Below are positions 4,469 through 27,683 of a stretch of 64,000 bases of DNA, one piece after another. Origin of the DNA: Embleya hyalina (lineage in GTDB: Bacteria; Actinomycetota; Actinomycetes; Streptomycetales; Streptomycetaceae); contig NZ_BIFH01000037.1 of the NCBI RefSeq assembly GCF_003967355.1, positions 88,277 through 152,276 on the forward strand, given 5' to 3'. Position 1 is the stretch's first letter. The number at the start of each line of letters is the position of its first letter. A program made the position numbers and the translations under genes. The notes below the pieces were generated by a model, which worked only from the letters and a program-made list of their open reading frames with translations, searched no databases and was not told the DNA's origin.

Positions 4469-4679
4469 ACGCGCCTTGGCGTACCAGCAGTTACACGGCG
4501 AACAACACGAACTGCGTGGAGGCCGCCCCGCTGTCGGGGACGGTCGCCGTGCGGGACTCGAAGGTACCCGGGGGCCGGCCCTCGTCTTCGGCGCCGCCGC
4601 CTTCGAACGGTGCGTCGCGGCGATCGCGTTGGGCGCCGCGAGTGTGCGTCCTCGGCCCTCGCGTCGGTGGGCCGCGTGA
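4432..4679 (+). pseudogene. DUF397-family gene, frameshifted
   Basis: The first frame gives WRTSSYTANNTNCVEAAPL and then VAVRDSKVPGG, the typical DUF397 core. At about 4570-4580 the match moves to another frame, which continues PALVFGAAAFERCVAAIALG, the typical DUF397 end. A single-base indel in the G/C run ACCCGGGGGCC explains the break. DUF397 proteins are small partners of XRE/DUF5753 regulators in actinomycetes. A sequencing error in the G-run is possible, but the partner regulator beside it is also degraded. Confidence 0.7.
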
Positions 4680-4788
4680 GGGGGATCCCCATGACTCGGG
4701 TGGTTGTGCTGCGGCAGCCTGACGGCCTGTCACGTCGCTTGGCGGATGTTCCCGTCGGGGACGAGCCTCCCGGAAGGAACCATTCTTC

Positions 4789-5553
4789 ATGCCGTTTCGT
4801 GCCCGCTTCGCTGCCGCCGTCATACCACCCCTCCTCGTGATGACCGCCGCGTGCGGCGGGTCGGGCGACAAGAAGGACGATGCGAAGGCGCTCGATCCGG
4901 GCAGCACTGTGGGCGCGACCACCGGTGCCCCGGGCGGTGGTTCCGTGACCGGCGGTGCGGTCGCCGCCGGCACCAAGGGTTACAAGCTCGTCGTCCCGGA
5001 GTCGATCGACGCCTACACGAAGTCGAGCACCGGCACCACGCCCGACGCGAAGGAGGCCGAGGACCTCGGGGTGAAGAACGCCCAAACGGTGTCCGGCGTC
5101 TACAACGCGCCCAATCCCGACCCCGACAACCGGGCGAGGCTGGGCGGCACTCGGCTGAACTTCCACGGTTTCCACGGCGAGATCACCGACCCCGCCAAGG
5201 CACTCGACGCCTACCTGGCCAACGTCGGCAACAAAGGCATGAAGGGCGCCGGGAAGGCGCCGGGGACCGACATACAGCCCATCGGAGGCGCCAAGACCGT
5301 CAAGCCCGCCGGCTTCGAGGGCGCGCTGATGAAGTGCCAGGTCATGCAGTTCACCCACGGCAAGGGCGACGGGGCCGCGAAGGCCCCTGCCGATTTCCGG
5401 TTCCCGGTCTGTGCCTGGGCCGACTACGCAACCCTCGGCGGCGTCGACGTCGCCGTCTTGACGGAAATGAAGACGGGCGGCGAGGGCATCTCCCCGGACG
5501 AGGCAGCCACGCTGACCGCCAAGCTCTACACCCTGGCCCGCCAAAAGCCCTGA
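4789..5553 (+). CDS. Putative lipoprotein
   Basis: A 254-residue secreted lipoprotein. It has a basic N-terminus (MPFRARF), a hydrophobic stretch and a lipobox ending VMTAAC-G, then a Gly/Thr/Lys-rich linker and a soluble domain of about 190 residues. Two further Cys (in MKCQVM and FPVCAWADYA) could form a disulfide. I do not recognise the domain; small actinobacterial lipoproteins of this build are common and mostly uncharacterised. GGAAGGAA lies upstream of the ATG. Confidence 0.75.
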   Translation: MPFRARFAAAVIPPLLVMTAACGGSGDKKDDAKALDPGSTVGATTGAPGGGSVTGGAVAAGTKGYKLVVPESIDAYTKSSTGTTPDAKEAEDLGVKNAQTVSGVYNAPNPDPDNRARLGGTRLNFHGFHGEITDPAKALDAYLANVGNKGMKGAGKAPGTDIQPIGGAKTVKPAGFEGALMKCQVMQFTHGKGDGAAKAPADFRFPVCAWADYATLGGVDVAVLTEMKTGGEGISPDEAATLTAKLYTLARQKP

Positions 5554-5645
5554 CCCACGACGCGGCCCGCCCGATCCCTCCCGGAAACCCACACCCCCGA
5601 GCCGACCCAAGCCGGCTTCTCCGAATGACTCTTCTCGGACACCCT

Positions 5646-9756: not shown

Positions 9757-11091
9757 TCAGCCGACGACGACGCGGATGGCGGCCCGCACGCGCCGCTCCA
9801 GGGCATCGAGCCCGTCGGGCGTCGGGGCGTCGATGAAGAACGTGACGGACCGGTCGTCGGAGTCGGCGAGCGGGGTCAGCGCCGCGCCGCGCTCGCGCAG
9901 GACCAGCACGGCCCGCAGCGTCGGTTCCTCGCCCGGCCCGCCGGGCTTGATGTCGGGCCACACACCGCTGGCGCCGATCCACTCCGGCCGCACGTCCGGC
10001 CAGTCGAGGACCACATCCTCCAGCGTGCCGGGCCGGTGCTCCAGGTAGACCTGGCGGGCATAGCGGTACGGCCGGGGGTAGTTCGCCGGTTCGCCGAGCG
10101 CGACGCGCAGGATCTCCGGCTCCAGCGGTCGTCCGGTGGCCAGTTGATACAGCGTCAGCAGCCCGTCGCCGGGGGTGCGCGCCGCCACCTCGATCAGGCG
10201 CGGGCGACCGTCGTCGCCGACCCGCCACTCGGAGTGGGCGATGCCGTGCTCGAACGCGAGCGCCGCCACCAGTTCCCGGTTGGCGCCCAGGAGCGCCGCG
10301 CGCAGGTCCTCGCGCACGCTCGGCACGCTGTGCGCCATCTCCACGAAGGTGTGCGTGTGGCTGTCGGTGGTGACCTTGTCGGTCACCGAGGCGAAGACCA
10401 CCTCGCCGTCCTGGATCAGGCTCTCCACGGAGAACTCCGGGCCCGACACCTTCTCCTCGACGAGGACGACCTCGTGGTCGGGGTACGTCGCCAATCTCGC
10501 GCGCAGCCCCGCCACGTCCGCCACCGTCTCGACGCCGGAACTGGACGCGCGCGAGGCGGGTTTGACCACGGCCGGGAAACGCACCGCGTCCAGGTCGACC
10601 CGCTCGCGCTCGCCGGCGGGAATGGTCAGCGACGCCGGGCCCAGGCCCGGGGCGTACCAGCGCTGGAGGTACTTGCTGCGGCAGGCGCGGCTGGCGCGCA
10701 GCCCGGGCGAACGCACGCCGAGCCCGTCGGCGAGCAGGCCGGTCGGCTCGGCGAGGTAGTCGCCCACCGCGTAGGCGCCCACGATGGTGTACGCCTCGCG
10801 CCAGGCCGAGGTGCGCGCGATCGCGCCCGCGACGAACGCGCCCTGCACGGTGAAGTCGCCGGTGACATAGGCGATTTCGGTGATCTGCGCGGCGGGGTTG
10901 GAGGTGTCGGCCATGGCCTCCGTCGCCTGCGCGCGGTAGGACTCCGCGGTGATGACCAGGATCTTGAGCCCACGCCCGGAGAGTTCGGTCAGGTAGAGCG
11001 GATTGCGGCGGATCACGGGAAACGAGCCGGTCAGGATGAACGCCTGGGGCCGGTCGGCCGATTCCCGCGACTCGAACGGTGCCTGGGTCAT
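9757..11091 (-). CDS. ATP-grasp carboxylate-amine ligase
   Basis: A 444-residue protein of the ATP-grasp superfamily (biotin carboxylase/PurK-like). Visible parts are the nucleotide-binding strand VVKPASRASSSGVETV, the hinge VVLVEEKVSGPEFSVESLI, and the metal-binding strand RPRLIEVAARTPGDG. Family members activate a carboxylate as acyl phosphate and join it to an amine, thiol or hydroxyl group. In this operon it may form an amide or dipeptide bond late in the pathway, or attach an amino acid to the N-N building block (inference). The ATG at 11091 gives a normal N-terminal Rossmann-like domain. LYS9-like gene lies 131 bp upstream. Confidence 0.85.
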   Translation of the reverse strand: MTQAPFESRESADRPQAFILTGSFPVIRRNPLYLTELSGRGLKILVITAESYRAQATEAMADTSNPAAQITEIAYVTGDFTVQGAFVAGAIARTSAWREAYTIVGAYAVGDYLAEPTGLLADGLGVRSPGLRASRACRSKYLQRWYAPGLGPASLTIPAGERERVDLDAVRFPAVVKPASRASSSGVETVADVAGLRARLATYPDHEVVLVEEKVSGPEFSVESLIQDGEVVFASVTDKVTTDSHTHTFVEMAHSVPSVREDLRAALLGANRELVAALAFEHGIAHSEWRVGDDGRPRLIEVAARTPGDGLLTLYQLATGRPLEPEILRVALGEPANYPRPYRYARQVYLEHRPGTLEDVVLDWPDVRPEWIGASGVWPDIKPGGPGEEPTLRAVLVLRERGAALTPLADSDDRSVTFFIDAPTPDGLDALERRVRAAIRVVVG

Positions 11092-11222: not shown

Positions 11223-12383
11223 TCAGGCCGTCCGGTGCCGCTCGTCGAAGCGCGGCTCGACGCCGTTCGTGCTCAGGAACTCCAGCCACCGGCGGGCGTC
11301 CTCGGCACCCTGGGCGGCCTGGCGCAGGCCCGCGGGCACCCGTCCGGCGAGGATCTCGGTGATCCCGTACGCCAGCGGCAGGGACACGCACCGCGCCATC
11401 GCGCTCTCCTCGGCGTCGCCGACCGTGTCCAGGACGTATTCGCCGCGCCAGCCGGTGCCGTTCGCGCCCTCGATGTCGAGCGCGACGGCGAGGACGACGC
11501 GGTCCCGGTCGGCGTCGGTGGTCGGATACCGGGCGGCGAGTTCGTCGGCGAGGGCGGCGATGCGGTCGCCGTCGCCGGTGCGCACGGTGGTGAACACGTC
11601 CTCCCACGCCCGCGACCAGCCGTCCAGGCGCAGCGTGCCCCGGACGAACACGCGGGCCCGCCAGTCGGTCGGGAACGCGTACTGGGTGAGGTAGGGGAGG
11701 CTGTCGCGGTTGGGGTACGCCTCGAACGTCTCGCCGTCGAGCACGAGCGCGCGCGTCGCCGTCCACGGGAGGTCGACCACCTGCTCGACGTCGCCGTCGA
11801 GGTAGCGGGCCGGCGCGCGCAGCGCGTTCAACACCCCGCGCGGCGCCCAGCTGAAGCGGTAGCGGAACTCGTTGGATTCGGCGGGGACTCCGCCGCAGTA
11901 CGAGGTGAACTCGACGGTCGCCGGGCCGTCGCCGACGACCTCGCGGCCCCTGGCCACCAGCAGGTCGGCGAACAGATGGTCGATGCCCGGGTCCAGGCCC
12001 GCCTCGGTCAGCACGACCAGACCGGCCTTCGTCGCGGCCGGCGCCTCGGTGACGATCTCCTCGGACACGTAACTGCTGCACGCGAAGTGGGCGTCGCGCT
12101 CGATACACAACCGCAGCAGCGCGGGGTGTTCGCTCGCGGGCAACATCGACACGACGATGTCGCCCTTGTGCAACTCCGCGCTCAACCGGTCGAGATCGTA
12201 CGCGCGGGCGGCGGCGCGACCGGTCAGGTCCAACCGGGCCAGGCACCGCTCGGCCTTGGTGTCGGTACGGCCCCAGACCAGCAGCCGCTCGGCCCGGTCG
12301 GCCACCACCCGCACCCCGCTGCCGGTGGACAGGCCGGTGCCGATCCAGTGCACGGTTCCGCCGGCGGGTATCGCGTCAGACAT
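11223..12383 (-). CDS. Saccharopine reductase (LYS9)-like dehydrogenase
   Basis: A 386-residue protein with a degenerate N-terminal Rossmann segment (WIGTGLSTGSGVRVVAD), then DIVVSMLPASEHPALLRLCI, and the motif LVVLTEAGLDPGIDHLFADLL. That motif is typical of the saccharopine dehydrogenase/reductase (LYS9) and homospermidine synthase group. LYS9 interconverts saccharopine with 2-aminoadipate 6-semialdehyde (AASA) plus glutamate using NADP(H). It overlaps the LYS1-like gene by 8 bp, so the two fungal-type enzymes are translated together. I infer that they rebuild lysine from AASA left by hydrazinoacetate release. A direct role on the hydrazine lysine adduct, itself a saccharopine analogue, is the alternative. 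Confidence 0.8.
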   Translation of the reverse strand: MSDAIPAGGTVHWIGTGLSTGSGVRVVADRAERLLVWGRTDTKAERCLARLDLTGRAAARAYDLDRLSAELHKGDIVVSMLPASEHPALLRLCIERDAHFACSSYVSEEIVTEAPAATKAGLVVLTEAGLDPGIDHLFADLLVARGREVVGDGPATVEFTSYCGGVPAESNEFRYRFSWAPRGVLNALRAPARYLDGDVEQVVDLPWTATRALVLDGETFEAYPNRDSLPYLTQYAFPTDWRARVFVRGTLRLDGWSRAWEDVFTTVRTGDGDRIAALADELAARYPTTDADRDRVVLAVALDIEGANGTGWRGEYVLDTVGDAEESAMARCVSLPLAYGITEILAGRVPAGLRQAAQGAEDARRWLEFLSTNGVEPRFDERHRTA

Positions 12384-13461
12384 GGACGTTCTCCGTTTCC
12401 AGGCCGTTCGCCTCGCATGCCTCGCGGAAGACCCGCAGGCAGCGCTGCCAGGGTTGACCCGGTTCTCCCAGGGTCAGTAGATGGGGCGTCAGTTCGGCGG
12501 AGAAGGCGGTACTGGCCTCGCCGGGAAGCAGCGACGGCAGGTTGTCGATGGCGATCACCCCTAGCGGGTCACCGACATCGGTCAACGCGCGGACCGGTTC
12601 GCGCCAATCGGTGATGTCGTCGTAGACGGGCAACACATTGTTCCGGGACGTGACATCACAGGTGACGTCCACGATCAGGGACAGTCGCCGAGGCCCGGAC
12701 CGGAGCGACGCGAGGGTCACGAACGGCGGGGTCGGCGCGGTCACCAGCACGGCGTTGACGAGGATGTCGTGATCGAGCAGGGCCGCGTGATCCAGCGACC
12801 TGGTCTCGGCCACGTCCCAGCAGGTCGGCTCGATTCCGGCGACCGCCAGCGCGTCGCGCGCGCCGCGCCCGCACCGGCCCAGCGCCCCGATGACCAGCAC
12901 CCTCGGCCGCGCGCCGCTCGACGTCTCGCGCAACACCCGGTCCAGGTCCTCCTTCGGGCGCGGGCGCAGCGGCGGATCGAGCCGGCCCCGATGCCGGAGC
13001 ACCGCGAGCGCGGCGCCCACATATCCGGCCCAGTAGCCGAAAGCGGCCAGCCGCCGACCGTCCGCGTCGGTGAGGTATTCCAGGTCGAGCAGCGCGCCGG
13101 CGCCCGCCGTGAAGCGCCGCAGCAGCGCCCGGGCGTCGCGCTGGCCCTTGTACGCGTGGCCGAAGAACACGTGCCGGTGCCGCAACGCGGGCGGCTCGTC
13201 GGGGAGTTCCTTCAGGCCCACGACGAACTCCGCGGCTGGCGCGGCGCGCCAGCTCCCGGCGTCGGCGGCCACGCAACCGGCGTCGAGGTAGTCCCCGATC
13301 GGGAACACGCGCTGCGGCGAGTGCTCGACGGTGACCGTGATGCCGTGCGCGACGAGCCGCGCGGCGTCGGCCGGCACGATCGGCGCGCGCCGCTCGCTCT
13401 CGCGCGTCTCGTGCCGCATCGTGATCCCGACATCGGTCGTGCGCGGGCGGGGATCGGCCAT
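12376..13461 (-). CDS. Saccharopine dehydrogenase, lysine-forming (LYS1)-like
   Basis: A 361-residue protein of the alanine dehydrogenase/LYS1 family. It shows the N-terminal signature MRHETRESERRAPIVPADAA, the conserved HVFFGHAYKGQ (HAYK with the catalytic His/Lys pair), LLDLEYLTDADGRRLAAFG and the dinucleotide-binding segment VLVIGALGRCGRGARDA. LYS1 interconverts saccharopine with lysine and 2-oxoglutarate using NAD(H). Most bacteria make lysine by the diaminopimelate route and lack this enzyme, so its presence beside a LYS9-like gene in a lysine-consuming operon is telling. Length is close to fungal LYS1 (about 370). Confidence 0.87.
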   Translation of the reverse strand: MADPRPRTTDVGITMRHETRESERRAPIVPADAARLVAHGITVTVEHSPQRVFPIGDYLDAGCVAADAGSWRAAPAAEFVVGLKELPDEPPALRHRHVFFGHAYKGQRDARALLRRFTAGAGALLDLEYLTDADGRRLAAFGYWAGYVGAALAVLRHRGRLDPPLRPRPKEDLDRVLRETSSGARPRVLVIGALGRCGRGARDALAVAGIEPTCWDVAETRSLDHAALLDHDILVNAVLVTAPTPPFVTLASLRSGPRRLSLIVDVTCDVTSRNNVLPVYDDITDWREPVRALTDVGDPLGVIAIDNLPSLLPGEASTAFSAELTPHLLTLGEPGQPWQRCLRVFREACEANGLETENVHV

Positions 13462-13509
13462 GTGCTGTCCTCCGGTTTCCGGTTCGTGGTCGCGCGGGGG
13501 CGGGCCGAC

Positions 13510-15855
13510 TCAGATGACCAGGTCGGCCAGGTCGTCGGCCGCGCCGGGGGCGGAAGGATCGGGGGACGGGGTATCGGGGTCCGCGGTGTCGCGGGGCGCG
13601 GTGTCGGCGGGCGCGCCCTCGGCTCCGGCGACCGGATCGCCGGTGGCGGATATGCGCTTGAGCATGGGCTGTTCGAGAAAGTACGCGAAGGAGGCGTAGC
13701 CGCGCCAGACCCGGCGCCACTGCTCGGCCACCGCCGCCTCGCCCGCGGTGCGCCGCACCCGGTCGAGGAATCCGACGATGATGTCGGCGGCCTGTTTGGC
13801 GTGCCCGGCGGAGAAGTTGTCGATGGTCAGGTGGGCCTGTTCGTAGCAGTCGTCGATGCCGTGGTGGCGCAACTTCTGTATCTCGTGCAGCCGCATCTCG
13901 CCGGAGCCGAACATCTCGATCGCCAGGTTGTAGCCCAGGATCTCGTTGTGGAAACGATCGGGGAACAGGCACATGCACAGCTGCTGGATCGCGAACCCGT
14001 AGAGGTCGTCCGGAAGTTCGTCCTGCTCGACGAACGCCTCGTCGCGAATGTGCGGCAGTTCGATGCCCGCGCTGGCCAATACCCGGTGGGTCAGTGTGAT
14101 GTGGTTCTTGCGCAGGTCGCCGTTGCCCATCTCGTCGGCGTAGATCGCGAACAGCATGGCGTCGGTCTCGCGCTCGTCGTGCCCGAGGTTGCCGAGGCGG
14201 TGCAGCCACGCGCCGTCGATGAGGTAGGTGAGGTAGTAGGTGGACTGCCGGAACAACACCTCGTCGCGGTCCGGGATCTCGCGCAGCGGTTCGTAGGGGT
14301 CGACCAGCTTGTCCCAGTAGACCCGCTCGGCCCGCTCGTACAGGGCCCGCGGGCTGTAGTCGAACCAGGTCGCGTCGGTGTACCGGCCGCCGGCCCCGTG
14401 TACGAACAGGATCTCCGCGTCCCGGAAGCATCGTTCGGCCCGTTCGGCGGCGATCGGCAGCGTGTTGGCGAAGTTCTCGATGTTCACCAGGTGGTGGAAC
14501 AGCTCGCGGTGGTCGCGGGGTTCGGCCTCGGCGATCACCACGTCGGCCGGGGCGCTGCGGATGATCGCGGCGCGTCGGCGCTCGGCGGCCGCGTCGCCGG
14601 CGGTCTCGGCGGAGATCTCGACGGTGGGCCGCTCGCCCGCCTGTACGCTCACCGCCCACGCCCGGAACGTGGCCGCCTCGTGCTCGTCGAAGATCCCGAA
14701 CATCGGCCCGCCGAAGCGCATCGCGTCCAGGAGTCGGCAGTCGCCGTTGCCGGGCCCGCGCAGATATCCGGACTCGCGCAGATCGGTGAGGAATCCCACG
14801 AGGTCGATCCGGGCCGCGCCGAAGACGTCCGTCAGCGCCCGGCCGCCGACCCGGGTGCCGCCGTGTTGGCGGCCGGCCAGCGGGGCGTGGCGCGCGATGA
14901 TCGCGGCGACCCGCGACTCCAGGGTGCGGCCGGCGCGCCAGGCCGCGTGTTCGGCGAGCATCGCGACGTGCTCCCGCTCCAGCTCCAGGGTCAGCCGCAC
15001 GGCCGTGTACAACCGGCGGCGCGCGGCCGGTCCGGCCACGGCCAGGTGCTCGGCCAGCACTTCGCGCAGGGCCGGCTCCGGCAGCAGCGGTGCGGTGTCG
15101 GCGAGCAGGTCGTCCACGCCGAGCGCGAGGAAGGCGTAGTGCACGCCCGAGACCTCGGGCAGGAAGTTGGCCGGCAGCCGGGACAGGGCCAGGTAGAAGG
15201 CGGCGTGCAGGGCGGTGAGCGGGCGTGTGCGGGCCCGGTCCGCGAAGTCGGCGGCGGCGATCTCCGGCAGGAGCACACCCGCGTCCTCCAGCGCGCGCCG
15301 GCGCGACCGGGCCTGGCCGCGCTCGGGGTTGCCGCCGCCGCGCAGCGTCAGGTGGTGCGCGAAGAGCCGGTTGACCACGACGGACGGCTGGGTCGCGGGC
15401 TGGGAGAGCGTGTCCAGCCAGCAACCGGCCGCCAGTGCCAGCGGCGCGCGCCCGCGCAGGGCGTCCGCGCGGGCGTTCGGACCCGATCGGATCAGCGCCT
15501 CCAGGACCTCGGCCGCCTCGGCCCGGGCGGCCCGCACGTCGGCGGCGATCGCCCCGGCGAGGACATCGGCCTCGGCGTCGATGCCACCCGTCGGGTCGCC
15601 GGGCCCGGGGCGGCCCGCGTCGGTCAGGAACGCGTCCAGCACGTGGCGGGCGACCAGGAGCGTCGACTCCGACTCCTGGTCGCGCAGCAGCAGGCGGAAC
15701 AGCTCGTCCGGCTCCGCGCGTACCGCCGCCCGGGCCCGGTCCCGGGCGGCGCGGCCGAAGACGAAGGGCCGGTGCGGCAGCGCGTCGACGGTGTCGGGCA
15801 GCACGAAGGGCACGAAGGCGCGGTCGGGACCCGGGGTACGCGGTGCGGTGGTCAT
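13510..15855 (-). CDS. Haem-oxygenase-like di-iron protein (iron-containing redox enzyme family), two-part
   Basis: A 781-residue protein. The C-terminal half (about 430-720) has the marks of Haem_oxygenas_2-type di-iron oxidases: ADEMGNGDLRKNH (about 577-590), FHNEILGYNLAIEMFG (about 633-648) and HLTIDNFSAGH (about 673-683), which carry the Glu/Asp/His ligand pattern. The N-terminal about 400 residues are helical and Ala/Arg/Leu-rich with no motif I recognise. A Pro/Asp-rich tail follows. Family members such as UndA, BesC and SznF activate oxygen for C-C cleavage or N-oxidation. Here it may oxidise the hydrazine or hydrazone nitrogen, or act on the carrier-bound unit (inference). It is much longer than single-domain relatives. 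Confidence 0.8.
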   Translation of the reverse strand: MTTAPRTPGPDRAFVPFVLPDTVDALPHRPFVFGRAARDRARAAVRAEPDELFRLLLRDQESESTLLVARHVLDAFLTDAGRPGPGDPTGGIDAEADVLAGAIAADVRAARAEAAEVLEALIRSGPNARADALRGRAPLALAAGCWLDTLSQPATQPSVVVNRLFAHHLTLRGGGNPERGQARSRRRALEDAGVLLPEIAAADFADRARTRPLTALHAAFYLALSRLPANFLPEVSGVHYAFLALGVDDLLADTAPLLPEPALREVLAEHLAVAGPAARRRLYTAVRLTLELEREHVAMLAEHAAWRAGRTLESRVAAIIARHAPLAGRQHGGTRVGGRALTDVFGAARIDLVGFLTDLRESGYLRGPGNGDCRLLDAMRFGGPMFGIFDEHEAATFRAWAVSVQAGERPTVEISAETAGDAAAERRRAAIIRSAPADVVIAEAEPRDHRELFHHLVNIENFANTLPIAAERAERCFRDAEILFVHGAGGRYTDATWFDYSPRALYERAERVYWDKLVDPYEPLREIPDRDEVLFRQSTYYLTYLIDGAWLHRLGNLGHDERETDAMLFAIYADEMGNGDLRKNHITLTHRVLASAGIELPHIRDEAFVEQDELPDDLYGFAIQQLCMCLFPDRFHNEILGYNLAIEMFGSGEMRLHEIQKLRHHGIDDCYEQAHLTIDNFSAGHAKQAADIIVGFLDRVRRTAGEAAVAEQWRRVWRGYASFAYFLEQPMLKRISATGDPVAGAEGAPADTAPRDTADPDTPSPDPSAPGAADDLADLVI

Positions 15856-15898: not shown

Positions 15899-16816
15899 TC
15901 ATGCGCCGGCTCGGCGCAGCAGCACCCCGATCCGCTGCCCGGGGACGCCGGCGGCCAACAGGTAGTGCCGGCCCGGTTGTACGTGCCCCGCCTCGGCCCG
16001 GTCGACCAGGTTGATCAGCGGGTCGGCGGCGAAGCAGTGGCCCACCCGGGTGATGTTGTCCAGATGGAGCTGGGCCGGGGTGAAGCCGGCCTGTCGTTCC
16101 TTCATCACGATCACGGGTTTGAAGATGTTCGCGTGCATCAGGCCCGCGATGTCGCCCGGCTTCATGCCCAGGGGGGTGAGCAGGCGCTCGTTCACGGTGC
16201 GGGCCAGGTCCGCGCTGATCTCGTTGGAGTGCGCCAGCCTGCTCCGGTCCTCGGCGCTCGCGCAGGCCAGGATCTCGTAGCCGCCCTCGATCTCGCCGTC
16301 GGCCGTCACCAGGCAACTCGCCGCCCCGTCGCTGAACAGCGCGTAGCTCGCCATGCGGTCGTCCTCGTGCGCGGCGCTGTCGGTGGTGACCACCAGCACC
16401 CGCCGGTGGCGGCCGGCGCGGACGAACGCGGTCGCGGTGTCGATCGCGGCCAGCAGGTTGACGCAGCGGTTCATGTTCTGCCCGTAGAAGGGCACGTCGC
16501 CCAGGCCCGCCTCGGCCAGGAACGTCTCCATGAACGCGCCGTGCCCTTCCGAGGGCCCGGGCACGCGGGTGGAGCACAGCACGACGGCGTCGGCGTCGCT
16601 CGCGCCGGCGCGCAGCGTGGCCGCGGCGCTCTCCGCGGCCAGCTCGGCCAGGCCGCGCTCGGTCCGGCGCACGCTGCCCCAGCCCCACAGGTCGGGCGTC
16701 GGTGCCATCCTGAACTCGGCGGCGCGCGCGGGCAGATTGCCGATGCTCGTGTGCGCGACCTCGAACTCGCCCAGGACGTAGCGTGGTGCGTGCAGGTGGG
16801 CGGCCGGTGCGCTCAC
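15899..16816 (-). CDS. KAS III-like acyltransferase with Cys-His-His site
   Basis: A 305-residue thiolase-fold protein of the beta-ketoacyl-ACP synthase III class. Cys118 lies in QNMNRCVNLLAA and His228 in GLMHANIF. The usual active-site Asn (in GNTSAAS) aligns with His260 in RVGHCFAADP. FabH enzymes condense acyl-CoA with malonyl-ACP using Cys-His-Asn. Relatives with altered triads, such as CerJ, instead form esters or amides. The operon has no ketosynthase-extending partner enzymes, so acyl transfer from a carrier to an O or N nucleophile is more likely than chain extension (inference). The GTG start overlaps the stop of the preceding gene by 4 bp. Confidence 0.8.
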   Translation of the reverse strand: MSAPAAHLHAPRYVLGEFEVAHTSIGNLPARAAEFRMAPTPDLWGWGSVRRTERGLAELAAESAAATLRAGASDADAVVLCSTRVPGPSEGHGAFMETFLAEAGLGDVPFYGQNMNRCVNLLAAIDTATAFVRAGRHRRVLVVTTDSAAHEDDRMASYALFSDGAASCLVTADGEIEGGYEILACASAEDRSRLAHSNEISADLARTVNERLLTPLGMKPGDIAGLMHANIFKPVIVMKERQAGFTPAQLHLDNITRVGHCFAADPLINLVDRAEAGHVQPGRHYLLAAGVPGQRIGVLLRRAGA

Positions 16817-17746: not shown

Positions 17747-18541
17747 TCAGATCACTTCGACGTGCTGGTCGGCCCGAACAGCGCTCAGCAGCAGGTCGAT
17801 CACCGCCGAGGGGCCCGTGTCGCGAAAGTGGAAGTGGCCGCCGTCGACCCAGTGGCACTCGGGCGGGCGCACACACTCCCCCTCCCACAACGCGACCTTG
17901 TCGGCGGACAGATAGGGGTCGTCGCGCCCGGCGATCACCGTGACGCCCACCGACAACGGTGCGGCGGCCGTGTACTCGTATCCGGCGGCCATCCGGAAGT
18001 CGGCGATCACGCCGGGCAGCAGCAGGTCCAGGACCTCCTCCTGGGCCAGGACCTCCGGGGGCAGCCCCTCGAAGAACTCCAGTGCCTCGGCGAACGCGCG
18101 GCCCTCCAGGGCGGCGAGCCGACACACCCGCTCCGAGGGCGCGAGCGAGGGGGCCGAGACCCCGGAGACGAACAACCGGCGCAGCGCGGGTACATCGCGC
18201 AACCGCCGCGCGGTCTCGAACGCGACGAGGCTGCCCAGGCTGTGCCCGAACAGGTACACCGGCCGCGTGCCGTCGGCGCCCGCCGCGCCGGCCCGGGCCC
18301 GGATCGCCGAGGCCGCGCCGTCCGCGAACCCCGCCAGCGTCGGTCGGGCCTCCCGGGCCCGGTGCGCGCGGCCGGGTGGGCACACCGCGACCAGTTCGGC
18401 CTCGTCGCCCAATTCCTCCTGCCAGGCCAGGAACGACCGCGAGTCGCCGCCGGCGTGCGCGAAGCAGTAGACGAGCGGGGTGTGCGCGGCGGCGTCGTCG
18501 CGCGAGACGAACCAGCCGTCGCCGGTCACGGACACACTCAC
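17747..18541 (-). CDS. Type II thioesterase (alpha/beta hydrolase)
   Basis: A 264-residue stand-alone thioesterase of the GrsT/RifR type. VYCFAHAGGDSRSF forms the N-terminal region, LFGHSLGSL carries the nucleophile Ser101, and VDGGHFHF the catalytic His. Such enzymes remove wrong or stalled acyl groups from carrier domains. Because the NRPS here ends in a carrier without its own thioesterase, this protein might also release the product (inference). The GTG start overlaps the stop of the C45 gene by 4 bp (GTGA). Confidence 0.88.
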   Translation of the reverse strand: MSVSVTGDGWFVSRDDAAAHTPLVYCFAHAGGDSRSFLAWQEELGDEAELVAVCPPGRAHRAREARPTLAGFADGAASAIRARAGAAGADGTRPVYLFGHSLGSLVAFETARRLRDVPALRRLFVSGVSAPSLAPSERVCRLAALEGRAFAEALEFFEGLPPEVLAQEEVLDLLLPGVIADFRMAAGYEYTAAAPLSVGVTVIAGRDDPYLSADKVALWEGECVRPPECHWVDGGHFHFRDTGPSAVIDLLLSAVRADQHVEVI

Positions 18542-19635
18542 GAGGTCACCTCCGCCGACGCGGACCCGCCGAGCGTCGCGGGCGCGCCCAGTGCGAACGA
18601 GTGGGTGCGGTTCAGCGCCGGATCGCCCGGCCGCACGTGCAGTTCGCCGAGGTCCGGCCGCAACACCGCGGCCGCCACCGTGCGTTCCCGGCGGATGTCG
18701 CCGTTGCCCTCGACCCGGATCGGCGCCCGCGACAGCAGCGCGAAGTGTTCCTCGACGCCGGCGTCGGGCGGCAACTCGCCCACCCGGGCCCGGCAGGCGT
18801 CCAGCCGCTGCCGGGAGAAGTTCCGGGCGAAGACGTTGAGCTCGTCGTGGGCGAGGAAGTCCGGGTGCAGGAAGTGGTTGGTGTGCATGCTCGTCGAGGA
18901 CTCGCTCACCCGCTGCTCGTCGTCCAGGATCTCCACCCACGCCGTCTTGCGGGCGTCGCACAACACCAGGTTGCGCGAACTCGCGAGCCTGAGGGTGCGC
19001 AGGATCCGCACCGCCTCGTCCACGTCGGCGGCGCTGTCCAACAGATGACGGATGGCCAGGTACGGCGGCAGACCCGGCCGCCACCGGCCGCCGAGCACGA
19101 GGTTGAGCCCGACCGCCAGGCCGTCGCTGTTGATCCCGAGATAGCCCAGGAGGCCACCGAAGCCGAGCACCAGGACCCGGCGGGGCGAGCCGGTCCGCGC
19201 GATGTCCAGGACACAGATCTGGTCGTCGAGGTCGCCGTTGAGATCGACCGTCTGCGCCAGCACCGCACCGGCCGCGCCGGCGACGGCGTACGTCGTGCAG
19301 TCGCCCATGGTCGGGATGCGCCGGTACCCCATCACCTCGCGCCGGATCTGCAGCAGCAGCGCCTCGTCGGCATCGAGCCCCGCGCCCTCGGCCAGCCCGC
19401 GCAACTCCTCGGCCAGCAGCGGCGCCTGGGTCTCGATCTCGACCCGGTACGCGTCCAGCGTGGGCCGCAGCGTCGCCCACGACACCGGGGTCGACCCGAC
19501 CCGGTTCAGCCGGGCCAGTCCGTCGTCGAGGAAGGCCCGCAGGCTCTCGGCGCGTTCGACGCCGTGCCGCCGCCCGCACGCGAAGGCGTCGCCCCGGGCC
19601 CGCACCACCGGCACCGCGAGGGTGTCGGGGGTCAT
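18538..19635 (-). CDS. C45-family Ntn-hydrolase (acyl-CoA:6-APA acyltransferase-like)
   Basis: A 365-residue protein of the peptidase C45/IAT family. Gly-Asp before Cys113 in PTMGDCTTYAV marks the expected self-cleavage point that would expose an N-terminal Cys nucleophile. LGINSDGLAVGLNLVL and TSMHTNHFL are typical later motifs. Penicillin isopenicillin-N acyltransferase from this family removes and adds acyl groups on amines. In this operon a plausible job is removal or exchange of a protecting acyl group put on by the GNAT protein next to it (inference). ATGA overlap with the GNAT gene sets the start at 19635. Confidence 0.82.
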   Translation of the reverse strand: MTPDTLAVPVVRARGDAFACGRRHGVERAESLRAFLDDGLARLNRVGSTPVSWATLRPTLDAYRVEIETQAPLLAEELRGLAEGAGLDADEALLLQIRREVMGYRRIPTMGDCTTYAVAGAAGAVLAQTVDLNGDLDDQICVLDIARTGSPRRVLVLGFGGLLGYLGINSDGLAVGLNLVLGGRWRPGLPPYLAIRHLLDSAADVDEAVRILRTLRLASSRNLVLCDARKTAWVEILDDEQRVSESSTSMHTNHFLHPDFLAHDELNVFARNFSRQRLDACRARVGELPPDAGVEEHFALLSRAPIRVEGNGDIRRERTVAAAVLRPDLGELHVRPGDPALNRTHSFALGAPATLGGSASAEVTS

Positions 19636-20246
19636 GCCTGCCCCGTCGGCCGGGTCACCTTGGGCCCGGCGAGCAACTGCTCCCGCACCGACGGCCATTC
19701 GCCGCGCAGCACGCTGTAGTAGATCGCGTCCCGGCGCCGCCCGCCGGGCATCGGATTGAAGCTGCGCAGCACCCCCTCCTCGGTGGCGCCGATGTTGCGC
19801 AGACCCGCCCGCGCCTGGAGGTTGAGCACGTCGGTCTTGAACTCCACCCGCTCGGCACCCAGTTGTTCGAACGCGTGCTCCAGCATGAGGAACTTCGCCC
19901 AGCGGTTGACGCCCCTGCCCCGGAACTCGGCGCCCAGCCACGACCACCCGATCTCCAGCCGCCCGTCCGGCTCGGCGATGCTGCAGAAGCTCATGCTGCC
20001 CGCCGTGCGGTCCACCGACTTGTCGATCACGTTGTAGACGACCCGGCGACCGGCGTCCTGATCGGCCAGCGCCGCGTCGAAGAACGCGTCGAACTCGGCG
20101 TCGGTGGCGATCACCAGCACGAAATAGCGCCAGATCTCGGGGTCCATCGCCTGTTTGCGGATCGCCTCGCGGTCCTCGGGGACGATCGGGCGCAGCAGGA
20201 CGTGCTCGTTCTCCAGTGTCGTCGAAGCGGTCCGCACCCAGGTCAT
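19632..20246 (-). CDS. GNAT-family N-acyltransferase
   Basis: A 204-residue GNAT protein of the RimJ/RimL-like group, with LLRPIVPEDREAI at the start, strand LEIGWSWLGAEFRGRGVNR containing the acyl-CoA pyrophosphate-binding RGRGVN motif, and AGLRNIGATEEGVLR. It sits 1 bp from the ACP gene, and the ligase is beside that. In triacsin biosynthesis a GNAT enzyme succinylates hydrazinoacetate before loading on a carrier, so the same masking step is the leading guess here. Self-protection by acylating the product is the alternative. Confidence 0.82.
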   Translation of the reverse strand: MTWVRTASTTLENEHVLLRPIVPEDREAIRKQAMDPEIWRYFVLVIATDAEFDAFFDAALADQDAGRRVVYNVIDKSVDRTAGSMSFCSIAEPDGRLEIGWSWLGAEFRGRGVNRWAKFLMLEHAFEQLGAERVEFKTDVLNLQARAGLRNIGATEEGVLRSFNPMPGGRRRDAIYYSVLRGEWPSVREQLLAGPKVTRPTGQA

Positions 20247-25000: not shown

Positions 25001-25383
25001 TCGACCTCGGCCTCCCGCACCTGTCGGCCGTCGGGGGTGAAGCGGGTGCGCAACGCGTCGTGGCGCGCCACCACCGCGCGCAGCGCGGCCTCCAGGCGGT
25101 CGAGGTCCCAGGCACCCTCGATCTCGTGGTAGACGTGACTGGCCACGTTGCCCATCTCGACGTGCTCGCCCCGCCCGACCAGGTAGCTGCGTTGCAGGTC
25201 GGTCATCGCGAAGCCGTCCGGCGGGTCCAGATGGGCGACCAGGGCCGCCTTGTGCTCCTTGATCAGGCGCAGCAGTTCGGGATCCATCCGTTCCCGGGGA
25301 CCCTGCAGGCGCAGATCGGCTCCGGAGGCCGAGATGGTCAGCCCTCTGGCCTCGATCTCGCGGAGAACCCCGAGGTGCTTCAC
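22042..25383 (-). CDS. NRPS module: TubC docking - Cy (cyclization) - A (predicted Cys) - PCP
   Basis: A 1113-residue single module. Residues 1-52 (KHLGVLREIEARG) are a TubC-type N-terminal docking domain. Residues about 58-480 match Cy domains: FAMTDLQRSYLVGR, D187-x4-D192-x2-A195 (the DxxxxDxxS motif with Ser changed to Ala), and SQTPQVWLDVS. The A domain (YTSGTTGEPKGVM, FDLSVYD, GGPTETTIW, NGYRIEAGEVE) gives the ten-residue code D-L-Y-N-M-S-L-I-W-K by alignment to PheA, a known cysteine code. The PCP has LGGDSL near the end. Cy plus Cys normally yields a thiazoline. No oxidase, epimerase or thioesterase domain is present. GTG start at 25383 overlaps the upstream stop (GTGA). Confidence 0.9.
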   Translation of the reverse strand: MKHLGVLREIEARGLTISASGADLRLQGPRERMDPELLRLIKEHKAALVAHLDPPDGFAMTDLQRSYLVGRGEHVEMGNVASHVYHEIEGAWDLDRLEAALRAVVARHDALRTRFTPDGRQVREAEVEVRVGRMDLRDASEATRHEHLRAERASRSHRVLPADRAPLVAVDVTVLADDRMVLHVDHDGLVMDAIAMFLFFRDWRRAYDAGEDAAESPAEEASFEAYVAAVEAARTRAPAKRARGYWMERLDDLAPAPDLPLRTSPSSIVAPRFSARFARLTEPRWSALKARAAAAGLTPSAVLFAVYADTLAAWGAGSRFTINTTVANRPPIHPRIFEAVGNFCETMLVEIEVDRRLPFVERARALQAGLRRGLDNRHFTGIEVLREAARRGDGAARGPMPYTFNSALGYAHADVDGSALEVFGPEVYTSSQTPQVWLDVSTFEQHGGVVVQFDSVDGLFPDGLVPDLVSGYQHLLEALLAEESWSARTFDLLPEAQRERRRTANATATAPPAPGMLIDAFLAHVERAPDAPAVLTAGASLSYAQVYGHAAHAAAWLRAHDVVPDELVGLVMGRGPEQVVGILATMLAGAAYLPVDAALPPARRAYMLDNGRARVVLTNDARAGAEAGREVLVLDVGRPLPPGPVPDPRPVPGASNDDHLAYVLYTSGTTGEPKGVMVARGSVANVVADCNTRFGIGPTDRFFGISAFNFDLSVYDVFGALCAGAAVVLPDADRAADPAHWLSLCAEARVSVWNSVPAIVSLLRDQAAEGTDALDTLRLVMMSGDRIPPTLPQDLRKLVPDARIVSLGGPTETTIWNVSHPIGPDEDGSRSIPYGRPNANNRAYLLDEFGCDVPDGVTGEIWAAGVGLARGYWDDPELTAARFVLDPERGERLYRTGDLGRYLPDGEIDILGRGDFQIKVNGYRIEAGEVETRLVALSAVERAVVSRQPGARGDRLVAHLVPAGDERPDVEAVRAALREHLPQYMIPAAVYWHAALPLTRNGKVDRAGLAAAAEAAGPASTAPTAADSELELVVAGLWAKPLRVADVDLDVTRPLYDLGGDSLVAARILAGVRKRFGLTITLDRLPEVDTIRTMAAHIERGLAERTGAGASTP

Positions 25384-27683
25384 GCCGGCACCCCCGTGCG
25401 TGCGGCGACGTCGTCCGGATCCAGGCCCTCGGCGATCAGCGCGCTCAGTTCGGCGACGGTGCGGGCGCCGAGCAGTTCCTCGATCGGCACGTCGGCGTCC
25501 ACCTGCTCGGTGAGTCGGTACTGCAGGGCGATCGCCTGGAGCGACGCCATGCCCAGCTGGATCAGCGAACGGTCGTGCACGGGCTCGTCGGCGGGCAACC
25601 GCAGGAGATCGCGCACCAGCGCGCTGAACCAGGGGAGCAGCGGCGGCGCCGGTCGGTCGGCGGTCGGGTCCGAGGATCGCGCGTCGGCCGTCCCGGGGAC
25701 GGCGAAGAACTCCCGACCGGCCAGGTCGACGGCGGTCCCGGCGGGCACCAGGTCGACCCGGGCGGGCCAGCGGGTGGGCGCGGGGATGCCGAGCGCGGCC
25801 GAGAGGCGATCCGCGAACCGGGGCATCACCGGGGCGCCGCACGTGGCGAGCAGTCGGGCGGCGGCCAGTTCGAGGGCGATCCCCGTGCGCGCCTCGTCCT
25901 TGAAGTCCGCCACGTCGGCGGCGGGGGCCTGGAGACGGGCGAAGGCGGTGACGTCGGTGACGATGCCGTCCAGCAGTTCGGCCGCGCGGTTGAGCGAGAA
26001 GCCGTCCTGTCCCAGGGCCCCGGTCAGCGCCGACCGGCGCGCCTCCAGGCGGGCCAGGAAGGCCGCGTGCTCGGGCCGCCAGACGCCGGCGTCGGGTGCC
26101 ACGCCGGCGTGCCGCTCGGCGACGCGCTCGCCCAGGTCGTTCAACCACCTCTGCCAGGTGCCGACCAGGGTGTCGCGGACGAAGGTCTCGTAGGTGTCGG
26201 GGGAGAAGCTGGTGCGCCGGCCCTCGGGGCGGGTCAGCGCGAGGTAGAAGCGGATCGAGTCGACCGTGCGGGGGTTCAGCACGTCCTTGCCCCAGATCGC
26301 GTGGCCGCGGCTGGTGGAGAACTTGCTGTCCTCCAGGAGGTAGAACTCGTTGATGTTGTAGTCGATGTCCGGCTGCCAGCGCGGATGCGCGACCCGATAC
26401 AGCGCCGGGATGAACATGGGGTGGAAGAAGCTGCCGTCCGAGCCCAGGAAGTGCACGATCTTCCAGTCGGGCGAGGGGGCGTCCGCGTCCCAGTCGCGGC
26501 CCAGGTCGCGGCCGAGTTCGCCGATGCCGTACAGGATGCTGAAGGCGTAGTCCAGCCAGGACCAGATCACCTGGCCCGGCACATCGGTCTCGGCGGGGGC
26601 GATGCCCCATTCGGCCACGTGCGTGACCGGGATGTGCAACTGCTCGCGGCGGCCCAGGCGTTCGGCCAGTTCCTTGACCGCCGCCGGGACCCGGCCGAGC
26701 CGGTGGTGGTCGGTGACCACCTTCCCGAACTCGTGCAGCGGGAAGGTGTAGCGCACCAGGGCCCGCTCGTGCGGAGGCGCGTCGCACGCCGCCGAGCGCG
26801 GCTCGATCAGGTCGGTGCACACGTTGGGTTCCAGGCACGTCTCGCAGATGTTGCCGCCGCTGTCGCCGTCGCACGTGGGGCAGCGGCCGGAGACCCCCGA
26901 CTCGTACAGGTATTCGCCGGTGTCGGCGGCGAACAGCGCGGCACTCTCGCGCGGCGCCACGGTTCCCGACGCGGTCAGTCGGGAGAAGAACGCCCGCAGC
27001 GCGGCCGGATAGGCGTCGTCGCGACTGGTCGCGGTGTACTGGTGGACGTCGATGTCCATCAGCTTCAGCGTGGCCAGGATCTCGGCGCTGTAGTGCGCGG
27101 CGGTCTGCGCCGGGGTGCGGCCCTCCCGACGGGCGGCGGCCACCACGTAGTTCTGGTAGTCGTCGCTGCCGGTGATGTGCCAGGCGTCGGCGCCGAGCAT
27201 GCGCTGGTGGCGCACGAACACGTCGGCGCCGAAGAACGGCCCCGACAGGTGGCCCAGATGCAGGTCGCCGTTGGGTGTGGGCGCGGAGGAGAAGACGAAC
27301 ACGGGACGGGTGCCGAACCCGCGGTGTCCGGTGTCGTGGGCGGCGTGCGTCGCCCGTTCGCCGTCGCGCCAGTACAGGCTGACGAACAGCAGGTCGGTGT
27401 CTCCCGTGTTCTCCACGGAGTGGGTCTCGAACGGTTCGAACTGGACCACGGTGGAGGCGGACACCGGATGGCGTTCGGCGTCCACGGTCAACTCCCCGGT
27501 GCCGGAGACGAACACCCATGTCTCCGTCTCGTCGTGCTGGTGCGCCTCCGAGCGCGCGCCGGGGGCGACACCGACCCAGGTCGCGCCGACACCCAGCCGC
27601 GTCGCGGAGCCCGCCTCCACGGCGGCCACGGCGACGCCGTCGGCGGCGTGGGGGGCGTCGGGGCGGTAGGTGCTGATCTTCAC
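25380..27683 (-). CDS. Hydrazine synthetase-like cupin/MetRS-like protein with fused C-terminal carrier domain
   Basis: A 767-residue protein. Residues about 1-115 are a cupin with G42-x5-H48-x-H50-x3-E54-x6-G61 and later H88-x3-N92. Residues about 125-640 resemble methionyl-tRNA synthetase: HLGH (142-145), a zinc knuckle C268/C271/C280/C283 and a KMSKS-like KFSTSRG (454-460). Spb40 in s56-p1 biosynthesis has this cupin-MetRS layout and joins N6-hydroxylysine to glycine through an N-N bond using ATP. Unlike the Spb40-type layout as I know it, residues about 675-760 form a carrier domain with Ser714 in LGMASLQAIAL. Its short tail runs to the NRPS start, whose product has a docking domain. Confidence 0.9.
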   Translation of the reverse strand: MKISTYRPDAPHAADGVAVAAVEAGSATRLGVGATWVGVAPGARSEAHQHDETETWVFVSGTGELTVDAERHPVSASTVVQFEPFETHSVENTGDTDLLFVSLYWRDGERATHAAHDTGHRGFGTRPVFVFSSAPTPNGDLHLGHLSGPFFGADVFVRHQRMLGADAWHITGSDDYQNYVVAAARREGRTPAQTAAHYSAEILATLKLMDIDVHQYTATSRDDAYPAALRAFFSRLTASGTVAPRESAALFAADTGEYLYESGVSGRCPTCDGDSGGNICETCLEPNVCTDLIEPRSAACDAPPHERALVRYTFPLHEFGKVVTDHHRLGRVPAAVKELAERLGRREQLHIPVTHVAEWGIAPAETDVPGQVIWSWLDYAFSILYGIGELGRDLGRDWDADAPSPDWKIVHFLGSDGSFFHPMFIPALYRVAHPRWQPDIDYNINEFYLLEDSKFSTSRGHAIWGKDVLNPRTVDSIRFYLALTRPEGRRTSFSPDTYETFVRDTLVGTWQRWLNDLGERVAERHAGVAPDAGVWRPEHAAFLARLEARRSALTGALGQDGFSLNRAAELLDGIVTDVTAFARLQAPAADVADFKDEARTGIALELAAARLLATCGAPVMPRFADRLSAALGIPAPTRWPARVDLVPAGTAVDLAGREFFAVPGTADARSSDPTADRPAPPLLPWFSALVRDLLRLPADEPVHDRSLIQLGMASLQAIALQYRLTEQVDADVPIEELLGARTVAELSALIAEGLDPDDVAARTGVPA

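What the first reader, a model, noticed from the sequence alone, without database searches (positions are those of the whole stretch)
11223..13461. LYS1/LYS9 pair may recycle the spent lysine carrier
Seen: overlapping genes for a lysine-forming saccharopine dehydrogenase (HVFFGHAYKGQ) and a LYS9-like reductase. Known: these are the last two steps of fungal lysine synthesis and are unusual in bacteria that use the diaminopimelate route. In characterised hydrazinoacetate pathways the DAO-type oxidase leaves 2-aminoadipate 6-semialdehyde. LYS9 and LYS1 would turn that plus glutamate back into lysine. Lysine would then be a regenerated nitrogen carrier, with glutamate the net nitrogen donor.
Basis: inference. 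Interest (0 to 1): 0.82.

Follow-up and report, generated by a model that had tools for sequence, protein, structure and literature searches.

The report
Saccharopine enzyme pair beside hydrazine genes
Two neighbouring genes for the last steps of fungal-style lysine synthesis sit inside a bacterial azaserine-like gene cluster and most likely turn the leftover half of the lysine used to build a nitrogen-nitrogen bond back into lysine, as a helpful but non-essential step that still needs an enzyme test.

Summary
A LYS1-like gene (12376-13461, minus) and a LYS9-like gene (11223-12383, minus) overlap by 8 bases. They match fungal lysine-forming saccharopine dehydrogenase (E 1.5e-68) and saccharopine reductase (E 9.5e-41); the yeast LYS1 active-site residues checked are kept. 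They lie in a 16-gene azaserine-type cluster of an Embleya-like actinomycete with the full hydrazinoacetate module. The pair is already published as azsH/azsI (azaserine) and tri23/tri24 (triacsin), read there as lysine supply. Closing the loop from the spent carrier (2-aminoadipate 6-semialdehyde plus glutamate back to lysine) is the best explanation and fits what I found, but is not shown. Limits: only 12 of 20 hydrazinoacetate-type loci in 394 Streptomycetaceae genomes carry LYS1 within 15 kb; two Streptomyces have nearly the same cluster with exactly these two genes missing; a paper reports that deleting tri23/tri24 did not change triacsin output; and 53 of 78 LYS1 places lie in an unrelated pterin-type locus. 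So it is an accessory cassette, present or absent as a unit, not a core step. Unexpectedly, the window cluster also lacks the AzsF dehydrogenase and AzsG P450 of Streptomyces azaserine clusters.

The parts
11223..12383 (-). LYS9-like saccharopine reductase (azsI/tri24 type), 386 aa
   Evidence: PF16653, PF03435; 1e5l E 9.5e-41; AlphaFold2 model pLDDT 90.3, VIA-align Z 35-38 to saccharopine enzymes
12376..13461 (-). LYS1-like lysine-forming saccharopine dehydrogenase (azsH/tri23 type), 361 aa; stop overlaps the LYS9 start by 8 bases
   Evidence: PF05222; 2q99 E 1.5e-68; ten yeast positions kept; overlap and GGAGG upstream seen
13510..15855 (-). haem-oxygenase-like iron enzyme, HDO (azsE type)
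   Evidence: PF14518 E 2.4e-15
9757..11091 (-). ATP-grasp protein (azsJ type)
   Evidence: PF13535; next to LYS9 in 14 mapped azs-type loci besides the window (10, 1, 3), not in L108 or L118
8429..9751 (-). MFS transporter (azsK type)
   Evidence: homologue annotated MFS transporter in L181; tblastn map
15899..16816 (-). ketoacyl synthase III-like carrier-to-carrier transferase, KAS (azsD type)
   Evidence: PF08545
16813..17676 (-). isocitrate lyase/PEP mutase family (azsC type)
   Evidence: PF13714 E 2.2e-71
17747..18541 (-). thioesterase (azsB type)
   Evidence: tblastn to loci; alpha/beta fold hydrolase at the matching place of L118
18538..19635 (-). C45 hydrolase (azsT type)
   Evidence: NF040521 227 bits, over cut-off
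19632..20246 (-). GNAT acyltransferase (azsS type)
   Evidence: tblastn; GNAT at the matching place of L118
20248..20511 (-). acyl carrier protein (azsQ type)
   Evidence: tblastn; acyl carrier protein at the matching place of L118
20495..22045 (-). AMP-binding ligase (azsP type)
   Evidence: tblastn; AMP-binding protein at the matching place of L118
22042..25383 (-). NRPS, condensation/Cy-A-CP (azsO type); FNS in place of FTS and a DxxxxD motif
   Evidence: Pfam; motifs
25380..27683 (-). cupin / MetRS-like / carrier fusion: hydrazine synthetase (azsN type)
   Evidence: PF07883, PF09334, PF00550
27703..28809 (-). FAD oxidase (azsM/Spb39 type) that would release 2-aminoadipate 6-semialdehyde
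   Evidence: tblastn to loci; homologue annotated FAD-dependent oxidoreductase in L118; product from PMC13274452
28806..30158 (-). lysine N6-hydroxylase (azsL type)
   Evidence: PF13434 E 1.7e-93

Best explanation
The pair is a lysine-return cassette for an azaserine-type hydrazinoacetate pathway. Lysine is hydroxylated at N6, joined to glycine through an N-N bond by the cupin/MetRS-like enzyme, and cut by the FAD oxidase into hydrazinoacetate and 2-aminoadipate 6-semialdehyde. LYS9 then condenses the semialdehyde with glutamate and reduces it to saccharopine; LYS1 oxidises saccharopine to lysine and 2-oxoglutarate. Net: glycine plus glutamate give hydrazinoacetate plus 2-oxoglutarate, lysine acting as a regenerated nitrogen carrier and glutamate as net nitrogen donor. 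It is an accessory step: it saves lysine and clears an aldehyde that could react with the hydrazine. Shown by sequence: identity of the enzymes, catalytic residues, cluster context, presence or absence as a unit. Taken from papers: the oxidase product and the paired LYS9/LYS1 chemistry. Inferred: direction in the cell, coupling to this pathway, benefit.
For: Closest solved relatives are the fungal lysine-forming pair. Ten yeast LYS1 positions kept. After the second strand LYS9 has Arg-Thr as in the fungal NADPH enzyme, and LYS1 keeps the Asp of the NAD enzyme (the cofactor reading is recalled knowledge), which suits the lysine-forming direction. LYS1 lies within 15 kb of 12 of 20 hydrazinoacetate-type synthetase loci, about 0.014 expected by chance, and of 0 of the 54 weaker matches on the same contig (read). 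All 16 pair-bearing loci in the tree keep the semialdehyde-releasing oxidase. All 6 plasmid records with LYS9 at 58% identity or more also hold the synthetase. LYS1 and LYS9 distances track the synthetase's (Spearman 0.81 and 0.82). No lysine 6-aminotransferase over the cut-off in the genome.
Against: 8 of 20 loci lack LYS1 nearby, and 6 of the 7 of these with neither gene keep the oxidase. Streptomyces sp. cf386 and MMG1121 lack both genes genome-wide while the mapped rest of the cluster is kept. tri23/tri24 disruption is reported without effect. 53 of 78 LYS1 places are in a pterin-type locus where no hydrazine genes were found, so the pair is not tied to this chemistry. Both reactions are reversible.
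Confidence: 0.62

Rival explanations
1. General aldehyde removal: LYS9 is the step that matters, trapping the semialdehyde as saccharopine so that it cannot condense with hydrazinoacetate; lysine return by LYS1 is incidental.
For: L077 has LYS9 without LYS1 beside hydroxylase, oxidase and synthetase.
Against: All 13 LYS1-bearing hydrazinoacetate loci in the census also have LYS9, and the LYS9-only genome holds LYS1 on other contigs. In cf386 and MMG1121 both genes are absent together.
Confidence: 0.13
2. Reverse direction: the pair degrades lysine to semialdehyde and glutamate to feed another product or general metabolism.
For: The reactions are reversible; pairs of this family exist outside hydrazine clusters.
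Against: The pathway consumes lysine and already makes the semialdehyde. Cofactor-site residues look like the fungal biosynthetic pair. No semialdehyde-using gene is apparent among the 16 assigned genes.
Confidence: 0.1
3. The enzymes act directly on a pathway intermediate, for instance cutting the lysine-hydrazine-glycine conjugate, as was suggested for the saccharopine-dehydrogenase-like PyrL of pyrazomycin.
For: The PyrL suggestion is quoted in PMC8664883 (passage); the conjugate resembles saccharopine (inference).
Against: The dedicated oxidase is kept in 16 of 16 pair-bearing loci, and closely similar clusters do without the pair. Another review assigns the same cut in the formycin pathway to an amino acid oxidase, PrfR. 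I held no PyrL sequence to compare.
Confidence: 0.08
4. Plain lysine supply or a passenger cassette with no benefit under most conditions.
For: Shikai et al. predict lysine supply; tri23/tri24 disruption without effect; patchy presence.
Against: Saccharopine has no other apparent source in a diaminopimelate organism, so lysine supply by this pair reduces to recycling (inference). Reading frames and the residues checked are intact and distances track the cluster.
Confidence: 0.07

Closest known systems
azsH/azsI of the azaserine cluster, Streptomyces fragilis (Shikai et al. 2023, PMC10445470; parts 1-3 of 6 of the text read, and passages)
   Same: Two saccharopine dehydrogenase genes side by side within the same set of azaserine-type genes.
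   Different: In S. fragilis azsF (acyl-CoA dehydrogenase) and azsG (P450) are listed before azsH; neither was found here. The paper predicts lysine supply and does not name the semialdehyde in its main text (0 occurrences).
tri23/tri24 of the triacsin cluster (primary papers not held; known through PMC10445470)
   Same: Homologous pair in a hydrazinoacetate cluster; L108 shows a triacsin-like order.
   Different: No NRPS of this type found in L108; disruption reported without effect.
Fungal LYS9/LYS1 (EC 1.5.1.10 / 1.5.1.7, numbers recalled)
   Same: Sequence, fold and the active-site residues checked.
   Different: Fungi use it to finish de novo lysine synthesis; this genome has lysA. The bacterial LYS9 is 386 aa against 450.
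PyrL of pyrazomycin (PMC8664883, passages)
   Same: Saccharopine-dehydrogenase-like enzyme in a lysine-based N-N pathway.
   Different: Suggested to cut the conjugate itself; here an FAD oxidase is present for that step. Sequences not compared.

Membership tests
Lysine-forming saccharopine dehydrogenase (LYS1) | Full-length similarity to yeast Lys1 | tested here: met
   11-349 of 361 aligned, E 1.5e-68
Lysine-forming saccharopine dehydrogenase (LYS1) | Active-site residues (yeast K77, H96 and neighbours; roles recalled) | tested here: met
   R18 K77 E78 H96 K99 Q101 E122 R131 D319 and D227 kept
Lysine-forming saccharopine dehydrogenase (LYS1) | Saccharopine + NAD+ to lysine + 2-oxoglutarate | not testable with these tools
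   needs enzyme assay
Saccharopine reductase (LYS9) | Sequence and fold of the family | tested here: met
   E 9.5e-41; Z 36.2-37.3, rmsd 2.5, 363-367 aligned to 1ff9, 1e5l, 2axq; the human SDH domain ties at Z 35.4-38.2
Saccharopine reductase (LYS9) | NADPH-type site at the end of the second strand | tested here: inconclusive
   Arg-Thr shared with Magnaporthe; the human NAD enzyme's residue was not printed
Saccharopine reductase (LYS9) | Semialdehyde + glutamate + NADPH to saccharopine | not testable with these tools
   needs enzyme assay
Animal AASS (LKR-SDH) | Both activities on one chain (recalled) | tested here: not met
   two genes
Azaserine (azs) cluster | Hydrazinoacetate module (azsL, M, N) | tested here: met
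Azaserine (azs) cluster | Succinyl-carrier module, KAS III, C45, NRPS with Thr to Asn change | tested here: met
Azaserine (azs) cluster | AzsF dehydrogenase that makes the hydrazone | tested here: not met
   no window match at E 0.1 or below; best-scoring genome match only 35% identical
Azaserine (azs) cluster | AzsG cytochrome P450 | tested here: not met
   no window match at E 0.1 or below; rest of genome not searched
Azaserine (azs) cluster | AzsR regulator and AzsU phosphopantetheinyl transferase | not tested
   not searched for
Azaserine (azs) cluster | Makes azaserine | not testable with these tools
   needs culture and LC-MS

The most novel reading that the evidence does not exclude
Lysine serves as a true catalytic nitrogen carrier: its epsilon-nitrogen is spent into the N-N bond and refilled from glutamate through saccharopine inside the same cluster, so that hydrazinoacetate is made net from glycine and glutamate while the same steps remove the aldehyde that would trap the hydrazine.
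Probability: 0.45. Interest if true: 0.6.

Novelty: new member of a known kind. Interest (0 to 1): 0.45.

Why it matters
If the loop closes, lysine joins the small group of amino acids used as recyclable nitrogen carriers, and the true nitrogen cost of azaserine- and triacsin-type compounds falls on glutamate. It also gives engineers a two-gene cassette, already present or absent as a unit in nature, to add to hydrazine-producing strains. The clusters that lack exactly these two genes make the question directly testable.

Tried and rejected
Chance proximity was rejected (12 of 20 loci against 0.014 expected). A lysine 6-aminotransferase as another route from semialdehyde to lysine: no match over the cut-off, but many weak aminotransferase matches, so a less typical enzyme is not excluded. 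The pair as a general marker of hydrazinoacetate clusters was rejected. The pair as specific to hydrazine chemistry was rejected: of 78 LYS1 places in 394 genomes, 53 are in the pterin-type locus, 12 in hydrazinoacetate loci, 13 elsewhere (contexts labelled by tblastn in stretches of 8 to 20 kb, one a 9.8 kb contig; L118 is a further plasmid locus not in the 394). One partial 51% synthetase match (G466:C15) was left out of the 20. The phylum-wide search for the synthetase found only the own genome at E <= 1e-100 among 396, so it added no outside case. The genome-contig scan gave 6 loci, one of them a distant archaeal hit not used. Searches for papers joining these enzymes to semialdehyde recycling listed no paper in which I saw such a statement, in a library that lacks the primary triacsin papers and one azaserine paper; Wei et al. 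2023 was not tried. A search for the LYS1 catalytic residues found nothing. No PyrL sequence was found; LYS9 hit no Rhodococcus plasmid. I did not model LYS1.

Full report
What is there. The two genes are real, intact and exactly at the stated coordinates on the minus strand, LYS1 12376-13461 followed by LYS9 11223-12383, overlapping by 8 bases. They are the thirteenth and fourteenth of 16 closely packed minus-strand genes from the lysine N6-hydroxylase (to 30158) to an MFS transporter (from 8429). The window lies in a 12.05 Mb genome.

What the two proteins are. LYS1 aligns over nearly its whole length with yeast lysine-forming saccharopine dehydrogenase (E 1.5e-68), far better than with the human LKR domain (E 4.9e-14). 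Ten yeast positions that I recall as active-site or cofactor residues are all kept. LYS9 is closest to Magnaporthe saccharopine reductase (E 9.5e-41), identical at 89 of 247 positions of the aligned part. Its AlphaFold2 model (mean pLDDT 90.3, 14 sequences) overlays fungal and human saccharopine enzymes about equally well (Z 35-38), then lysine dehydrogenase and carboxyspermidine dehydrogenases (Z about 31-33), so fold alone does not settle substrate. NCBIfam gave no match for LYS9 and only a weak alanine dehydrogenase match below cut-off for LYS1.

What the cluster is. The genes match the azaserine cluster of Streptomyces fragilis (Shikai et al. 2023, PMC10445470): hydroxylase azsL, oxidase azsM, cupin/MetRS-like/carrier fusion azsN, Cy-A-CP NRPS azsO, ligase azsP, carrier azsQ, acyltransferase azsS, C45 hydrolase azsT, thioesterase azsB, isocitrate-lyase-like azsC, KAS III azsD, iron enzyme azsE, the pair azsH/azsI, ATP-grasp azsJ and MFS azsK. 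The window NRPS has FNS where the paper describes a Thr to Asn change, and a DxxxxD motif. Missing are azsF and azsG, which sit between azsE and azsH in Streptomyces loci: copies from L109 find nothing at E 0.1 or below in the window, and the best-scoring acyl-CoA dehydrogenase in the whole genome is only 35% identical to the azsF copy. The same gap-free HDO-LYS1 order is seen in L080, L081, L182, L195 and L196.

What is already published. That paper names azsH and azsI saccharopine dehydrogenases, notes homologues Tri23 and Tri24, states that disrupting tri23 and tri24 did not influence triacsin production, and predicts lysine supply. Its main text does not mention the semialdehyde. Other papers state that the Spb39-type oxidase gives hydrazinoacetate and 2-aminoadipate 6-semialdehyde (passages), and that LYS9 and LYS1 together turn that semialdehyde into lysine by transfer of glutamate's amino group, both steps being reversible (passage). 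The recycling idea is a short step from these facts. I saw it stated in none of the papers that my searches listed, but the primary triacsin papers and one azaserine paper are not held.

How often the pair goes with hydrazinoacetate genes. In 394 Streptomycetaceae genomes there are 74 synthetase matches at E <= 1e-60, of which 20 (in 19 genomes) have at least 56% identity. LYS1 lies within 15 kb of 12 of these 20 (5.8 to 14.3 kb) and, on the same contig, of none of the other 54. All 12 also have LYS9. Of the other 8, seven have neither gene in the 20 kb examined, and one, L077, has LYS9 alone. Among 72,556 plasmid records, 6 hold LYS9 at 58% identity or more and all 6 hold the synthetase.

The natural deletion. 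Streptomyces sp. cf386 and MMG1121 carry clusters whose synthetases are 74% and 72% identical to the window's, but HDO is followed directly by the ATP-grasp gene, and neither LYS1 nor LYS9 is found in either genome. Streptomyces sporangiiformans and Amycolatopsis rhizosphaerae have HDO-LYS1-LYS9-ATP-grasp as in the window. On a synthetase tree of 32 loci (16 pair, 15 none, 1 LYS9 only) presence of the pair needs 5 changes, at least 4 forced by well-supported branches. The tree is a quick one with SH-aLRT support only, and warns of long branches among the rhizobial rows. All 16 pair-bearing loci have the oxidase; so do 13 of the 15 without the pair. Pairwise distances of LYS1 and LYS9 over 16 pair-bearing clusters follow those of the synthetase (Spearman 0.81 and 0.82), as HDO does (0.91). 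The cassette therefore travels with the cluster, comes and goes as a unit, and appears not to be needed for the core route.

The other home of the pair. Of 78 LYS1 places in the 394 genomes, 53 lie in one conserved locus with a GTP cyclohydrolase II, a creatininase-family gene and, in the nine loci fetched with longer flanks, a pyruvoyl-tetrahydropterin-synthase-like gene and a glycosyltransferase; 50 of these 53 also have LYS9. Thirteen are elsewhere, six with LYS9. In a LYS1 tree of 46 rows (all 13 hydrazinoacetate, all 13 other, 19 of the 53 pterin rows, and yeast) the pterin rows are one side of a branch (support 94), while the hydrazinoacetate rows need 5 changes. The same enzymes are thus used where no hydrazine genes were found, which weakens any claim that they evolved for this pathway.

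Mechanism and verdict. The most economical reading is recycling. The genome has lysA-type genes (four matches over cut-off), so lysine itself can come from diaminopimelate, and the only obvious source of semialdehyde for LYS9 in this cluster is the oxidase. The nitrogen that LYS9 brings from glutamate stays with lysine when LYS1 cuts saccharopine, so glutamate becomes the net donor. Direction, benefit and coupling remain unproven, and the reported knockout suggests that any benefit is small in the conditions used. I rate the observation confirmed, the interpretation partly supported, and the system a new member of a known kind with a testable, modest new idea.

Noticed in passing
window 13461-13510, and loci L080, L081, L182, L195, L196: The Embleya-type azaserine cluster lacks AzsF (acyl-CoA dehydrogenase) and AzsG (P450); the best-scoring AzsF match in the genome is only 35% identical. 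Either another enzyme (perhaps the iron enzyme) makes the hydrazone, or the product differs from azaserine.
   Followed up: partly
L088-L096 and most of L132-L178: A conserved Streptomyces locus joins the LYS1-LYS9 pair to GTP cyclohydrolase II, a pyruvoyl-tetrahydropterin-synthase-like gene, a creatininase-family gene, a glycosyltransferase and an LPG-synthase-like membrane protein; its product is unknown to me.
   Followed up: partly
L077 13476-14660: LYS9 without LYS1 beside hydroxylase, oxidase and synthetase, next to what looks by eye like a lysine 2,3-aminomutase gene, as annotated in the locus L115 of Streptomyces sp. SAT1.
   Followed up: no
L098, L100, L105: LYS1 alone beside genes that look by eye like purine catabolism (urate oxidase, guanine deaminase). 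In L098 and L100 the cofactor Asp of yeast LYS1 is Gly, so these copies may have changed function.
   Followed up: no
L112 (Sinorhizobium meliloti SM11 plasmid pSmeSM11b): An azaserine-like cluster with NRPS, iron enzyme and acyl-CoA dehydrogenase on a plasmid typed conjugative of a root symbiont, without the LYS pair.
   Followed up: no
L114 (Rhizobium rhizogenes pC5.7b) 4677-5591: A dapA-annotated gene lies near a hydrazinoacetate-type module, which could be another way to meet lysine demand.
   Followed up: no
G000 (own genome), loci L128-L131: Four lysA-type matches over the family cut-off in one genome.
   Followed up: no
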